A DNA stretch of 64,000 nucleotides from positions 248,001-312,000 of the forward strand of contig NZ_CANMJB010000001.1 in the NCBI RefSeq assembly GCF_947498175.1. The letters run 5' to 3'. Below the pieces are notes generated by a model. That model did no database searches. It was not told the origin of the DNA and saw nothing but the letters and a program-made list of their open reading frames with translations. Positions 17,605 through 44,230 of this stretch are shown here, one piece after another (the first letter of the stretch is position 1; each line of letters opens with the position of its first letter). The position numbers and the translations under genes were made by a program. The DNA is from an uncultured Algimonas sp. (GTDB lineage: Bacteria; Pseudomonadota; Alphaproteobacteria; Caulobacterales; Maricaulaceae).

Positions 17605-18894
17605 TTGGCGGAACCGGGTCAGAATGCACCCTTCGGCGGTGTCGAACGCAAGATCGCGATGCGCTATCTTCGCGCGAAGAAGAGCCAGGGCGGCGTCGGC
17701 TTCATCGCCGTGATCAGCTTCCTGTGCATCATGCTGGCCATCGCCGCGATGATCATCATCATGTCAATCATGAACGGGTTCCGGTCGGACGTTATCCGCC
17801 TGACCATCGGCAGCGAAGGCCACGTCTTCGTGCAGCCGATCGAGCCGGATGTCACGATCGAACAGATCGACGATCTGGAAAGCCGGATGCAAGCCATCCC
17901 CGGCGTGGAAAACGCCTTCCATTTCACCCAGCATTTCACGGCCGTCCAGGCGAATGGAGAGATGAGCGTCGCCCAGGTGATCGGCATCGCCAAGAACGAC
18001 CTCATGTCGTTCGACCTGATCGCCGACGGCGTCATACAGGGAAGCCTGGAAACGCTGGGCGAGGGCGCTGGTAACGAGCAGGCCATCGCCATTGGCTCTG
18101 CCATGGCCACGAGTCTGGGCGTGCAAGCCGGGGACCGCTTGCTCGTCTATTCGCCGCGGATGCGACAGACGATTTCGGGACCGGTTCCGGTCAGCAAGAC
18201 CTACACGATCGGCGCAATATTCGACGTCGGCCTGTTCGTGACGAACCAGACCTACATCTACATGGACATCGAACAGTCGACGCTTCTGTTCGAGGGCGGG
18301 CAGCTCATGGGCGATATCCAACTCAGGCTGGAAGACCCCGACGAGATCGACGGCATCGCGCCGCTCGTCTTGGAACGGGCCGGTCGTCCGGTGCGGATGC
18401 TGACGTGGAGAGACCGCAACCAGGGTACGGCCAGCGCACTCCGGATCGAGCAGGTTGCCATGCGCCTCATCTTCATGATCGTCGTCGTCATCGCGGCATT
18501 TCCCGTGCTCGCTTCGATGATCATGCTGGTGAAGAACAAGTCGCGCGATATCGCCATTCTTCGGACGATCGGTACGCCGCGCGGCGGGATCTTGCGGATA
18601 TTCCTGATGAGCGGGGCCACCGTCGGCATCATTGGGACCCTGGCCGGACTGGTGCTCGGCATACTGTTCTGCCTGAACCTGTATCCGATACAGCTTTTCC
18701 TCGAACGGCTCTTCAATGTGGAGCTGTTTCCAGCGTCCGCCTATCAGCTCGCAGACCGGATCCCCGTCAAGATCGTCTGGTCGGAAGTTGCGTCGGTGGC
18801 GCTGTGGGGTTTCCTGATCTCCGCGCTCGCCGTTTTCTGGCCGGCCTGGCAGGCGTCCAAGATCGATCCCGTCGAGGCGTTGCGCTATGACTAG
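17605..18894 (+). CDS. lolC: lipoprotein-releasing ABC transporter permease LolC/E family
   Basis: This 429-aa inner-membrane permease extracts mature lipoproteins for the LolA chaperone. One N-terminal membrane helix (about 35-58) is followed by a large periplasmic MacB-like domain and three C-terminal helices (about 285-415). The usual N-terminal coupling segment ERKIAMRYLRAKKSQGG is present. The start is TTG, four bases after proS. Only one permease gene is present beside lolD, so a homodimer (LolF-like) arrangement is likely. The 3' end overlaps lolD by eight bases. Confidence 0.92.
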   Translation: MAEPGQNAPFGGVERKIAMRYLRAKKSQGGVGFIAVISFLCIMLAIAAMIIIMSIMNGFRSDVIRLTIGSEGHVFVQPIEPDVTIEQIDDLESRMQAIPGVENAFHFTQHFTAVQANGEMSVAQVIGIAKNDLMSFDLIADGVIQGSLETLGEGAGNEQAIAIGSAMATSLGVQAGDRLLVYSPRMRQTISGPVPVSKTYTIGAIFDVGLFVTNQTYIYMDIEQSTLLFEGGQLMGDIQLRLEDPDEIDGIAPLVLERAGRPVRMLTWRDRNQGTASALRIEQVAMRLIFMIVVVIAAFPVLASMIMLVKNKSRDIAILRTIGTPRGGILRIFLMSGATVGIIGTLAGLVLGILFCLNLYPIQLFLERLFNVELFPASAYQLADRIPVKIVWSEVASVALWGFLISALAVFWPAWQASKIDPVEALRYD

Positions 18895-19588
18895 GCCCGT
18901 TCTGTCCGTCCGCAATCTGCACCGGGCCTACAAGTCCGGCGCAGGAATGCTCAAGGTTCTCGCCGGCGCCGACATCGATATCTTTCCCGGCGAAATGGTC
19001 GGCCTGATCGGTCCGTCCGGGTCCGGCAAATCGACATTGCTCCATGCCGCCGGATTGCTCGAAAAGCCGAATGCGGGTGAAGTCTTCATCAATGGCCGGG
19101 AGTGTCTGAAGCTACCCGATGACCAACGCACCGCCATTCGTCGCGAACGGATCGGCATGGTCTATCAATTCCATCACCTGCAGAAGGAATTCACAGCCGA
19201 GGAAAATGCGATGATCCCTCAAATGATTGCAGGCAAAAGCTCGCGTCGGTCGCGGGACGAGGCGCGGCGGCTGCTGACGGCCATGGGGCTGGGCGAACGG
19301 TTGACCCATCGCCCCAGCCAGATGTCGGGCGGCGAACAGCAGCGCGTGGCAATTGCCCGGGCGCTCGCCAACAAGCCGCAGATTCTGCTCGCCGACGAAC
19401 CGACCGGCAATCTCGACCCGGCCACGAGCGCGACCGTTTTCGATCAGCTCTATCAACTCACCCGGCAGGAGGGCGTGGCCGCGCTCGTGGCGACACACAA
19501 TATGCAGCTGGCCAGTTACATGGACCGGCTGCTGACCGTGCGCGAAGGCATGGTGGTGCCGTTCAAACCCGCGCCCGCTTCCTATTGA
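18887..19588 (+). CDS. lolD: lipoprotein-releasing ABC transporter ATPase LolD
   Basis: This 233-aa ATPase powers the LolCD exporter. It has Walker [10 protein letters not shown] at residues 42-50, a Q-loop in [17 protein letters not shown], the signature [14 protein letters not shown], Walker [13 protein letters not shown] and a switch His in VATHN. It overlaps the permease gene. Downstream lie about 170 bases without recognisable features, then the LexA-type promoter of the 31-codon gene. Confidence 0.95.
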
Positions 19589-19759
19589 GCTAAAGGCTGT
19601 CTGGCTGGAAGGTCTTTGCCGCAGGAACACGCTCTGGACTTTGTATGAGCGCGCAGCAGCTCGTCGGTCCGGGCCGAGACAATGTTCCGATTTCCCCTCT
19701 CCATAAGCGGTCGGTTCGTCTGCATGCGACAGGCAAGAAATTGCACTTGGAAAGGCAGC

Positions 19760-19788
19760 TTGACTCCGGAACAAAGCATGAACATAAG
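19760..19788 (+). promoter_or_regulatory. SOS promoter upstream of the 31-codon membrane peptide gene
   Basis: A -35-like TTGACT at 19760-19765 is followed 17 bases later by a weak -10-like CATAAG at 19783-19788, and the LexA box fills the spacer. A GANTC (GACTC) site at 19762-19766, the target of the CcrM methylase in this lineage, overlaps the -35. The spacing and the nearly identical layout in front of lexA support the call; the transcription start is not known. Confidence 0.6.
19769..19783 (+). promoter_or_regulatory. LexA box (GAAC-N7-GAAC)
   Basis: The site reads GAACAAAGCATGAAC, a direct repeat of GAAC with a seven-base spacer. This is the alphaproteobacterial LexA operator (GTTC-N7-GTTC) read on the other strand. 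It lies 44 bases upstream of the peptide gene, between its -35 and -10 elements, where repressor would block RNA polymerase. The lexA promoter in this window has a matching site. Confidence 0.8.
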
Positions 19789-19826
19789 CGCGGCACATTT
19801 CGGAATGGCCGAAAGAGGGGATAAGT

Positions 19827-19922
19827 ATGTTGAAGCAGTTCGCGCAGGACCTCGGGTCCGCTATCGTGTTGACGTCGTTCGTCGTCGTCATGTCGTTCTG
19901 GATGATGGTCGTGGGAGGATAG
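19827..19922 (+). CDS. sidA: 31-aa single-span membrane peptide, putative SOS-induced cell-division inhibitor (SidA-like)
   Basis: This short gene has an ATG six bases after the ribosome site AGAGGGG (19814-19820). The product has a short polar start (MLKQFAQDLGS) and one hydrophobic helix (about residues 10-30, with SFWMMVV) ending in Gly-Gly. A promoter with a LexA box precedes it, and its last codons contain the GGGAGG that can serve dnaE. In Caulobacter crescentus the SOS-induced inhibitor SidA is a 29-residue inner-membrane protein acting on FtsW/FtsN. From memory its gene also lies between lolD and dnaE. Size, topology, regulation and position therefore agree. Sequence identity could not be tested, so the name is an inference. 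Confidence 0.7.
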   Translation: MLKQFAQDLGSAIVLTSFVVVMSFWMMVVGG

Positions 19923-19929
19923 ACAGGCG

Positions 19930-22900
19930 ATGGTCCGGGATTTCGTTCATCTGCGCATGCGTTCGCCCTACTCCATGCTGGAAGGCGCGCTGAAGATGAA
20001 GGAGACGGCGGACCGTCTCGTCAAGTACCGCCAGCCCGCCATCGCCCTGACGGACACGAACAATCTCTGCGGCGCGCTCGAATTTTCCGAGACGATGAGC
20101 GCCGCGGGGGTCCAACCGATCATCGGCGTCACACTCTGCCTCGATATCGAAGGCGAGCGCCAGCCGGGGCAATTGCGCAAGGATCCCGACGGATCCCTCG
20201 TCCTGCTCGCGCAAAACGAAACGGGCTACGAGAACCTGATGGCCTTGTCGTCCTCGGCTTTTCTGGACGTCGATGCGACCGATCTGCCCCACATCAAAGC
20301 CAGTACGCTCGAAGGCCGGACGGAAGGTGTCATCGCGCTGACCGGCGGTCTGGACGGCATATTGGACGCTCTGATCGGTGGTGGCCGCACCGCAGAAGGC
20401 GAACGCTGGCTCGAACGTCTGATCGAACTTTTCCCGGACCGGCTATATGTCGAGTTGCAGCGTCACGGCCTTCCGCAGCAATCCGTGACGGAACCGGTGC
20501 TGATCGACATGGCCTACCGCCACGGACTGCCACTGGTCGCAACGAACGAGCCCTACTTCCTCGGCCCGGAAATGTATGAGGCGCATGACGCGCTTCTCGC
20601 CATGAGCGAGGGCTCCTATGTCCTCGAACAGGACCGGCGGAAACTGACGCCCAGACACTATCTGAAATCGACCGAAGAGATGTTGCAGCTGTTCGAGGAT
20701 CTGCCGGAAGCGCTCGCCAATACGCTGCACATTGCGCGCCGTTGCGCCTACAAGGCCTGCAAACGCAGTCCGATCCTGCCGCATTTCGGCGATGGCTCGC
20801 AGTCGGAGGCCGAAATTCTGGCCGATCAAGCCCGCGAAGGTCTCGAAGCAAGGTTGTCGAAAACCGAACTGGCCGAACCGCGCGAGGCCTATTTCGACCG
20901 ACTCGACTACGAACTCGGCATCATTACCCAGATGGGTTTTCCCGGCTATTTCCTGATCGTTTCGGACTTCATCAAATGGGCCAAGGAACATGACATTCCG
21001 GTCGGTCCAGGACGGGGGTCCGGTGCGGGGTCCGTCGTCGCCTGGGCGCTCCTGATCACCGATCTGGATCCGTTGCGCTACGGCCTGCTCTTCGAGCGCT
21101 TTCTCAATCCCGAGCGGGTCTCCATGCCCGACTTCGATATCGACTTCTGCCAGGAACGGCGCGGCGAAGTCATCGACTATGTGCGCCGCAAATATGGCGA
21201 CGGGCAGGTGGCGCAGATCATCACCTTCGGAACGCTGCAGGCCCGCGCCGTCGTGCGGGATGTGGGCCGCGTCATGCAGATGCCGCTGGGGCAGGTGGAC
21301 CGGCTGGCGAAGCTGGTGCCCAACAATCCGGCCAATCCCGTGACGTTGCAGCAGGCCATCAATATCGAGTCCTCCCTGCAGGATGCCCGCCGGTCCGATC
21401 CGACCGTGCGCAACCTTCTCGATACGGCGCTCTCGCTGGAAGGTCTCTACCGCAATGCTTCCACCCACGCCGCCGGCGTGGTCATCGGCGACCGTCCGCT
21501 CACGGAGCTGGTCCCGCTTTACCGCGACCCGCGCTCCGACATTCCGGCGACGCAGTTCACGATGAAATGGGCGGAAAAAGCTGGCCTGGTGAAGTTCGAC
21601 TTCTTGGGTCTGAAAACCCTGACGGTCATAGACCGCTGCCTGAAACTGATGCGCAAGGACGGCATCGACATCGATCTCGCCCAGATCGCCACGACGGAGC
21701 CCAAAGCCTACGAACCCTTGGCCAAGGGGCTGACGGCGGGCGTGTTCCAGCTTGAGAGTTCCGGCATGCGGGACGCGTTGCGCAAGCTCGAACCGGATTC
21801 GATCGAGGAACTGACGGCCATCATCTCGCTCTACCGGCCGGGACCCATGCGCAACATTCCGGATTTCATCGAGCGCAAATTCGGACGCCAGACCATTGAG
21901 TACCCGCATCCGGAACTGACGGATCTGCTCAAGGAAACCTACGGGATCATCATCTACCAGGAACAGGTGATGGAGATCGCGAAGATCCTGTCCGGTTTCT
22001 CGCTCGGCGATGCGGACCTGCTGCGTCGTGCCATGGGCAAGAAGGATCAGGCGGAAATGGACCGCCAGAAGGACAAATTCATCGACGGTGCCGTGTCGCG
22101 CGGAACCGACCGGGACCATGCGGCGCGCATCTTCGATCTCGTCAACGAATTTGCGGGCTACGGCTTCAACAAGTCCCACGCCGCGGCCTATGCGCTGATC
22201 TCCTTTCAGACCGCCTATCTGAAGGCCCTCTATCCGGCGCACTTCATGGCCGCCATCATGAGCCTCGACCTCAGCGTCGCCGAGAAGCTGGCTTTCTTCT
22301 TCCAGGAATCGAAGCGGATCGGCGTCGAAGTGCTGCCGCCCTGCGTCAACCGTTCCATGGCCGATTTCGATGTGGCCGATGGCAAGGTGCTCTATGCTCT
22401 CGGCGCGCTCAAGAATGTCGGTCTGGAAGCGATGAAGCACGTCGTGGAGGTTCGCGAGGGCGGCGGGCCGTTCACCGATATTTACGATTTCGCGCGCCGC
22501 GTGGATATGCGCATCATCAACAAGCGCGCTTTGGAGAATCTGGCGCGCGCCGGAGCGTTCGATTGCCTCGGCGTGTCCCGGCCGACCGCATTGGCCTCGG
22601 CGGAAATGCTTCAGAAGGTCGGCGCGCTAGCGGCCGAGGAGCGGGAATCGGCTCAGGTGAACCTGTTCGGCGGCATCGCGGAAGCCACGCCCGATCCGGA
22701 CCTTCTCTCCCGTCCGTCCTGGTCCAACATCGAGACGCTGGAACACGAATTCGGTGCCGTCGGCTTCTATCTCGGCGGGCATCCGCTCGAAGATCATCTG
22801 CAGACCATGTCCGAAACCATAGTCATGAGCGACAAGCTGGAAGACCTCGTCGCCAGCGGCCAGAAGAATTTCCGCGTGGCCGGGATCGTCCGCCGCCGTC

Positions 22901-23385
22901 AGGAACGCAGTTCCAAACATGGCAAGCGCTTCGCCTATCTCGGCCTGTCCGACCCGACCGGCGAATTCGAACTCTTCGTGCGCGAAGACTTGCTGTTCGC
23001 CAAGCGCGAGGTGATGACGGTCGGAAACGCGGTCGTCTGTGAAGCGCGGGTGGAAGGTGAGGGGGGCGATACCCGGTTCTTCGCGCAATCGGTCCGTTTG
23101 CTGTCCGGCTCTTCCCGGTCGGTCGATGAGGTCGCGCCGCCCAAAGGTTTGCGGATCCGTCTCAGAAACGCGGAAGCCGAGACGCTGGACGAGCTCGAAG
23201 CCATGCTTTGCAAATTGCGGGACACGCCGCATCTGCAGTCGGGCTTGATCGAACTGGCCGCCCCGCTAAGCGATGCGCGCGAAGCCCGATGGCGGCTACA
23301 AGGCAATTGGGCGATCGACCCGGAAATACGCAAGGCCTTGAAGGCGAACCGCGCCGTCGAGACGATCGAGGAAATTGCCGCCTAA
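19930..23385 (+). CDS. dnaE: DNA polymerase III alpha subunit
   Basis: This 1151-aa protein is the replicative polymerase. The order is an N-terminal PHP domain (about 1-270), palm/thumb/fingers with the catalytic aspartates in [20 protein letters not shown], a helix-hairpin-helix region, an OB-fold ([20 protein letters not shown]) and a C-terminal tau-binding region. No exonuclease domain is inserted, so proofreading should come from a separate DnaQ. The PHP start reads HLRMRSPYS, where E. coli has HLRVHSDYS. Loss of that His suggests a degenerate PHP metal site. The ATG lies seven bases after the SidA-like gene, so SOS control may extend to dnaE. Confidence 0.97.
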
Positions 23386-43507: not shown

Positions 43508-44149
43508 CTACTGGTAGTTGCGGACCAGTCCGACCAGCACGCCTTGGACCTGCACCCGGTCCGGACCGAAGGTGCGGCTGGGGAAGTCGGGATTCTCGGC
43601 GATCAACTCGACCTGGCCGTCATGCTTGTAGATACGCTTGAGCGTGGCTTCTTCCTCGTCGACCAGCGCCACGACGATCTCGTTGTTGCGGGCCGTGTCG
43701 GACTTGCGGACCACGACAACGTCGCCGTCCATGATGCCCGCGCCGATCATCGACTCGCCTTCGATCTCGAGCGCGTAATGGTCGCCATTGCCGAGCAGGG
43801 ACGGCGGCACGGCCATGAGGTTGTGCGCATCCTCGATCGCCGCGATGGGAACGCCTGCCGCGATCTTGCCGACGAACGGGATTTCATAGGTATCGTTGGC
43901 CGCGACCGGGGCGAGGGGCGCGTCCTTCTGCAGCCCTTCCGGCATCTTGATGATTTCCAGCGCGCGCGCCTTGTTGGGCAGGCGGCGCACGAAACCGCGC
44001 TCTTCCAGCGCTGTGATCAACCGGTGAATGCCGGATTTGGACGCCAGCCCGAGTGCATCCTTCATCTCGTCGTAAGACGGGGGCACGCCGACGGCCCGGA
44101 TGCGGGTATCGATCAGAAGGAGGAGGTCCTTTTGCTTTTTCGTCAGCAT
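43508..44149 (-). CDS. lexA: LexA SOS repressor
   Basis: This 213-aa repressor has an N-terminal winged helix ([17 protein letters not shown], recognition region [14 protein letters not shown]) and a C-terminal self-cleaving peptidase. The cleavage bond is A98-G99 in [10 protein letters not shown]. The catalytic dyad is S133 (EGESMIGAG) and K171 (ATLKRIYK). The frame extends 21 codons upstream, but MLTKKQ is the family start. A LexA box and TTGACA element lie just upstream, after the trpC stop, so it is autoregulated and may also be read from the trp operon. Confidence 0.97.
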
Positions 44150-44215: not shown

Positions 44216-44230
44216 GTTCTATGAATGTTC
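44216..44230 (-). promoter_or_regulatory. LexA box upstream of lexA
   Basis: On the plus strand the site is GTTCTATGAATGTTC. Read in the direction of lexA it is GAAC-N7-GAAC, six bases downstream of the -35-like TTGACA. It lies 67 bases before the lexA start. Together with the site at 19769-19783 it gives a local consensus of GAACA-N6-GAACA. Confidence 0.85.

What the first reader, a model, noticed from the sequence alone, without database searches (positions are those of the whole stretch)
19760..19922. SidA-like SOS division-inhibitor gene hidden between lolD and dnaE
A 31-codon gene with a good ribosome site encodes a single membrane helix. It is preceded by TTGACT, a GAAC-N7-GAAC LexA box in the promoter spacer and a weak -10. 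Established knowledge: Caulobacter SidA is a 29-residue, LexA-controlled inner-membrane peptide that blocks division through FtsW/FtsN, and from memory its gene lies between lolD and dnaE. All four traits match. It is easily missed by gene callers because of its length.
Basis: partly seen in the sequence, partly recalled or inferred. Interest (0 to 1): 0.85.

Follow-up and report, generated by a model that had tools for sequence, protein, structure and literature searches.

The report
SidA-like SOS division-inhibitor gene before dnaE
A 31-residue membrane-helix gene with a DNA-damage (LexA) switch lies just before dnaE; it is very likely a strongly diverged relative of Caulobacter's cell-division blocker SidA, and the same arrangement recurs more widely than the named SidA family.

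Summary
Window 19827-19922 (+) encodes 31 residues with one hydrophobic helix, 7 bp before dnaE; GAACAAAGCATGAAC lies at 19769-19783. The box alone is not significant; conservation carries the case. In genus members the peptide is under purifying selection (pooled pN 0.19, pS 0.66). Of 111 dnaE slots read in the order, 101 hold a comparable 27-31-residue helix gene, 76 of them with a strict LexA-type box. Strict box plus helix gene occurs in 73 of 111 slots, 0.01 expected from shuffles.

Caulobacter's slot peptide is SidA by NCBIfam NF033228. The window peptide misses that model but is tied to SidA through intermediates in its own family. The window genome has the same box motif at lexA, recA, uvrA, imuA, dinB and radA.

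Best reading: a diverged SidA ortholog, LexA-repressed, probably co-transcribed with dnaE, that halts division at FtsW after DNA damage. Identity is well supported; function is inferred.

The parts
18887..19588 (+). lolD, upstream border of the slot
   Evidence: ORF; NCBIfam TIGR02211 249.6 bits, below its cut-off of 307.75
19760..19765 (+). TTGACT, probable -35
   Evidence: a TTGAC element lies upstream of the box in 12 of the 13 f1 slots printed, the window's included
19769..19783 (+). LexA operator GAACAAAGCATGAAC, in the -35/-10 spacer
   Evidence: conserved in the slot; same motif at lexA and recA in this genome
19783..19788 (+). CATAAG, probable weak -10 (17-bp spacer)
   Evidence: read; not accepted by the tool's scan
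19815..19820 (+). ribosome site GAGGGG
   Evidence: read
19827..19922 (+). sidA-like gene, 31 aa, single membrane helix
19930..23385 (+). dnaE, 7 bp downstream, probably on the same transcript
   Evidence: no terminator-like site in 19560-19960
43511..44149 (-). lexA, the proposed repressor (range without stop codon)
   Evidence: TIGR00498 187.4 bits, cut-off 110.95
44216..44230 (-). LexA-type box before lexA, GAACATTCATAGAAC

Best explanation
This is a strongly diverged ortholog of Caulobacter SidA. Without DNA damage, LexA sits on GAACAAAGCATGAAC between -35 and -10 and keeps the promoter shut. Damage activates RecA, LexA cleaves itself, and an mRNA with sidA followed by dnaE is made. The 31-residue peptide inserts in the inner membrane (N-terminus probably inside, from its single Lys) and, as SidA does, binds the late divisome at FtsW, holding FtsW/FtsI/FtsN inactive so the cell elongates while it repairs. 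Shown here: gene, box, conservation, selection, homology chain to SidA, a LexA-type box at core SOS genes of this genome, an FtsW-type protein. Inferred: LexA binding, induction, co-transcription with dnaE, topology, FtsW binding, division block.
For: Same slot and operator: 101 of 111 order slots read have a comparable peptide, 76 with a strict box and 24 with only a one-base-degenerate box; strict unit 73 of 111 against 0.01 expected. Selection: pooled pN 0.19, pS 0.66 over 15 genus loci, the window's included. Homology chain: a profile from the rest of the window's family scores the window peptide 19.5 bits (99th percentile of shuffles 6.2), and 17 of 17 window-type and 25 of 26 Caulobacteraceae peptides beat all 60 own shuffles; with the hydrophobicity pattern kept, 16 of 17 and 18 of 26 beat all 100. 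The Caulobacter slot peptide of G176 is SidA by NF033228, 72.3 bits. SOS circuit: 116 boxes against 58 for the reversed control; boxes at lexA, recA, uvrA, imuA, two dinB-type genes and radA. FtsW-type protein present, 331.9 bits, just under the cut-off of 337.5. SidA function: PMC4211646 passages, PMC12700426 passages.
Against: The window peptide misses NF033228 at E<=10 and its genome has no NF033228 match at E<=0.05. A profile of Caulobacteraceae SidA alone scores it 1.1 bits, no better than shuffles (0 of 17 window-type peptides beat all 60). The box alone is within chance for the window. The promoter scan finds nothing. The gene is missing from 10 of 111 order slots. I have no expression or division data for this organism.
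Confidence: 0.82

Rival explanations
1. The peptide is an SOS-induced membrane toxin of the TisB or DinQ type that depolarises the membrane and slows growth, not a divisome inhibitor.
For: Length, single helix and a LexA-type box fit that type too; DinQ is an SOS-regulated toxic single-transmembrane peptide (PMC3567139, title and abstract start seen).
Against: The slot ortholog in Caulobacter is SidA and the profile chain connects them. I did not look for an antisense RNA partner.
Confidence: 0.08
2. The ORF mainly couples dnaE to SOS: the LexA promoter serves to raise DnaE, and the peptide is a leader for translation.
For: 7-bp gap to dnaE in the window; median gap 54 bp in the 73 order slots with the strict unit, measured to the match-based dnaE start.
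Against: The amino-acid sequence is selected; in genome G154 a SidA-like gene with its boxes lies on another contig than dnaE; 9 of the 73 gaps are 216-303 bp. It may be true in addition to the main reading.
Confidence: 0.06
3. Chance ORF and chance box.
For: The box alone is within chance for the window.
Against: Conservation, selection and shuffle controls.
Confidence: 0.01

Closest known systems
SidA of Caulobacter (NCBIfam NF033228, 29 positions)
   Same: Slot before dnaE, LexA-type box, 29-31 aa, one helix, near-gapless alignment
   Different: The window peptide is outside the curated model and 10-24% identical to the 26 Caulobacteraceae rows; here it lies 7 bp from dnaE
DidA of Caulobacter (71 aa)
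   Same: Small single-helix damage-induced division inhibitor (PMC4211646, passages)
   Different: Longer, SOS-independent, binds FtsN (same paper, passages)
YneA, SosA, ChiZ (SOS division inhibitors of Bacillus, Staphylococcus, Mycobacterium)
   Same: Membrane inhibitors modelled on FtsW (PMC13396833, passages)
   Different: YneA carries an extracellular LysM domain; SidA is modelled on the opposite side of FtsW TM7, at low confidence

Membership tests
SidA equivalog, NCBIfam NF033228 | Match above the curated cut-off of 35 bits | tested here: not met
   No match for the window peptide or its genome. Over the cut-off in 31 of 249 order genomes, all 31 in family f3, and in 1 of 14 control genomes (the call rings for E. 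coli, B. subtilis and Caulobacter vibrioides and does not say which one is over; presumably Caulobacter)
SidA lineage in the broad sense | Detectable descent from the same peptide | tested here: met
   Through intermediates only; the direct Caulobacteraceae profile fails on the window type
SidA lineage in the broad sense | Position just upstream of dnaE, downstream of lolD | tested here: met
   for the window; for Caulobacter, where lolD is farther away
SidA lineage in the broad sense | About 29-31 residues, one membrane helix | tested here: met
   (17-residue hydropathy maximum 2.45)
SidA lineage in the broad sense | LexA-type operator GTTCN7GTTC/GAACN7GAAC in the promoter | tested here: met
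   published Caulobacter motif in PMC12700426 (passage)
SidA lineage in the broad sense | Induction by DNA damage through LexA | not testable with these tools
   Needs expression data
SidA lineage in the broad sense | Binds FtsW/FtsN and blocks division | not testable with these tools
   FtsW-type protein present; interaction untested
TisB/DinQ-type SOS toxins | Antisense RNA control and membrane depolarisation | not tested
   Criteria recalled; no search for an antisense RNA was made

The most novel reading that the evidence does not exclude
SidA is not a Caulobacter speciality but an ancestral SOS division checkpoint of Alphaproteobacteria, held just before dnaE and often in one operon with it, so that one LexA operator both stops division and supplies replicative polymerase. 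Its sequence drifts so fast that only slot and operator reveal it.
Probability: 0.55. Interest if true: 0.72.

Novelty: new member of a known kind. Interest (0 to 1): 0.52.

Why it matters
In the passages and listings I saw, the only SOS division inhibitor named for alphaproteobacteria is Caulobacter's SidA, and NCBI's model is over its cut-off only in family f3 (Caulobacteraceae) among 249 order genomes. Slot plus operator shows the gene in four of the five families of the order examined and candidates in 12 families outside it. This gives tiny, concrete test genes for how these bacteria stop dividing after DNA damage, and a natural series of diverged peptides for mapping what binds FtsW.

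Tried and rejected
Direct comparison with NCBIfam and Pfam: no match for the window peptide except a sub-threshold DAGK_prokar hit (E 0.046), taken as composition. A direct Caulobacteraceae profile against the window type failed. Family f5 rests mainly on slot and operator: 0-1 of 14 f5 peptides beat their shuffles with the other profiles. The f5 profile itself beats all own shuffles for 4 of 27 f1rest peptides and 3 of 16 class peptides, so a weak sequence tie is possible. The single f4 sequence scores 23.2 bits with the f1rest profile. 'No strict box' slots at first looked like loss of LexA control; 24 of 25 carry boxes with one degenerate base, 1 (L109) none. A search for SidA letters in papers gave nothing. 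The 2011 Genes and Development SidA paper is not held, so its content is recalled or taken from later papers. No structure job was run.

Rows dropped: L051 (wrong flank of G168, refetched as L052); L001-L017 repeat or add to f1 and were not used in slot counts. Peptide picks used a motif filter; 7 slots it missed were read by eye. Choice of slots: 111 of the 247 order genomes with a dnaE match, hand-picked from a cut list to cover five families (51 f1, 30 f3, 16 f5, 9 f4, 5 f2); 89 of 147 other-order class genomes, those with the highest DnaE scores, so biased to nearer relatives. One of these, L344, is cut short by a contig end. The unit rule was written after I had seen the order slots and the first 29 class slots; on the 60 class slots read afterwards it gives 4 of 60, 0.007 expected.

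Full report
What is there. Between lolD (18887-19588) and dnaE (19930-23385) lies a 31-codon ORF at 19827-19922 with a GAGGGG ribosome site, one hydrophobic helix and a stop codon 7 bp before dnaE. Upstream are TTGACT (19760-19765), GAACAAAGCATGAAC (19769-19783) and CATAAG (19783-19788). The box sits in the -35/-10 spacer, where a bound repressor would exclude polymerase. The tool's promoter scan does not accept this promoter, and the box alone is within chance for the window: 4 found, 2.16 expected, 22 of 100 shuffles reach 4.

Is it a gene. In 40 relatives, 18 genomes (the window's own included) matched the peptide at E<=10. Of the 20 matches listed, 17 (L001-L017) lie beside dnaE; L018-L020 show no dnaE or lolD nearby and I treat them as chance. 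Over 15 genus loci, the window's included, 28 shared codons give pooled pS 0.66 and pN 0.19. The ten close pairs printed there have pN 0.00-0.05 with pS 0.19-0.55.

The slot across the order. I searched 249 genomes of the order for DnaE (247 matched) and read 111 dnaE slots, hand-picked from the listed matches to cover five families. A comparable ORF of 27-31 residues is present in 51 of 51 slots of the window's family f1, 30 of 30 of f3, 15 of 16 of f5, 5 of 9 of f4 and 0 of 5 of f2, together 101 of 111. Of the 101, 76 have a strict box within 130 bp, 24 have only boxes with one degenerate base, and 1 (L109) has none. lolD was seen on the same strand within the stretch fetched in 57 of 111 slots; most stretches reach only about 0.9 kb upstream. 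In G154 (f5) the dnaE slot has no such gene, but a SidA-like gene with one strict and one degenerate box lies on another contig; contamination, given as 2%, is not excluded.

Control. The unit counted is a strict box, then a 24-42-residue ORF starting 10-130 bp later, with mean hydropathy above 1.6 over 15 residues, ending by dnaE, against 100 dinucleotide shuffles per slot. Order: 73 of 111 with the unit, 0.01 expected; 82 of 111 with a box, 1.57 expected.

Link to SidA. The Caulobacter slot peptide from G176 matches NF033228 (cell division inhibitor SidA) with 72.3 bits against a cut-off of 35, and the slot peptide of G132 (C. vibrioides DSM 9893) is over the cut-off too, 69.9 bits. In 249 genomes that model is over its cut-off in 31, all in f3; 30 more have sub-threshold matches, some of them in other families; the window's genome has none at E<=0.05. 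Of 85 slot peptides, 26 match it at E<=10, not the window's; 26 is also the number of f3 peptides in that set, though the call does not list which members matched. The bridge is the rest of family f1. A profile of 27 of its peptides, without the window type, scores the window peptide 19.5 bits, and 17 of 17 window-type and 25 of 26 Caulobacteraceae peptides beat all 60 own shuffles. With the hydrophobicity pattern preserved, 16 of 17 and 18 of 26 beat all 100 shuffles. The direct Caulobacteraceae profile does not see the window type (0 of 17; window 1.1 bits). The 85-row alignment spans only 32 columns. My combined profile hits 164 of 249 genomes at E<=0.05, including 53 of 53 of family f1. 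That is partly circular, since many rows come from these genomes.

The SOS circuit in this genome. GAACN7GAAC occurs 116 times against 58 for the reversed control. I inspected 16 sites, mostly A/T-rich ones chosen from the list of places printed. Seven lie at the 5' end of genes identified as lexA (in the window, 43511-44149 minus, box 44216-44230), recA, uvrA (418 residues only), imuA (43.5 bits, below its cut-off of 150), two dinB-type polymerases and radA. The L254 polymerase is below the cut-off of each model listed. The other nine sites were not assigned.

Mechanism. SidA is a 29-residue inner-membrane protein that interacts with FtsW (PMC4211646, passages); [quoted passage not shown] Deleting sidA removes the filamentation of a lexA deletion (PMC12700426, passages). 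A recent model puts SidA on FtsW TM7, at low confidence (PMC13396833, passages). The window genome has an FtsW-type protein at 331.9 bits, just under the 337.5 cut-off, and a second, weaker relative. By orthology I infer the same action here. The 7-bp gap and the absence of a terminator-like site suggest a sidA-dnaE operon. In the 73 order slots with the strict unit the median gap, measured to the match-based dnaE start, is 54 bp. Joint SOS control of dnaE is therefore possible and untested.

Beyond the order. Among 153 class genomes, 150 had DnaE, 147 of them outside the order. I read the 89 with the highest DnaE scores: 22 have a strict box (0.87 expected) and 15 the full unit (0.04 expected). 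The unit rule was written after the first 29 had been seen (11 of 29); on the 60 read later it gives 4 of 60, 0.007 expected. L257 and L260 have a 47-residue version just outside the length limit. The 15 fall in 11 families outside the order, 12 with L257 and L260. In 11 of the 15, lolD was seen upstream. In five same-family pairs the peptide is selected (pooled pS 0.59, pN 0.14). Against the f1rest profile, 6 of 16 class peptides beat all 200 shuffles, and 7 of 16 beat all 100 hydrophobicity-preserving shuffles; L278, L279, L281, L273 and L287 show no sequence signal with it, the other five are intermediate. So shared slot and operator are firm, shared ancestry is supported for some and open for others, and 74 of 89 slots lack the unit (72 if L257 and L260 are counted). 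Searches of the paper library showed me no report of SidA outside Caulobacter. I saw listings, abstract starts and some passages only, and most subscription papers are not held.

Verdict. The gene is a diverged SidA-type inhibitor of a known kind, outside the curated SidA model. The wider value lies in the slot-plus-operator evidence that the checkpoint is older and broader than its named family.

Noticed in passing
L039-L043, L045, L046, L048-L050, L053, L055-L058, L068 (family f1): The peptide is kept but the operator is two boxes, each with one degenerate base (mostly GAACN7GAAT/A), 25 bp apart; many f3, f5 and f4 slots instead pair a degenerate with a strict box 16-18 bp apart. Possibly a weaker or cooperative LexA switch.
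   Followed up: partly
L377:917-1003: SidA-like gene with one strict and one degenerate box on another contig in genome G154, whose dnaE slot lacks it.
   Followed up: partly
L128 and L132 (family f2): No sidA in the slot, yet a LexA-type box in reverse orientation (GTTCN7GTTC) 84 and 137 bp before the match-based dnaE start, at the end of the lolD match; dnaE itself might be under LexA there.
   Followed up: no
L378 (genome G037): A second SidA-like frame with no box found in 2.3 kb.
   Followed up: no
L247, L249, L253 (window genome): LexA-type boxes near genes that I did not assign by any model; L247 looks like an endonuclease III relative and L253 like a ComM relative by eye.
   Followed up: no
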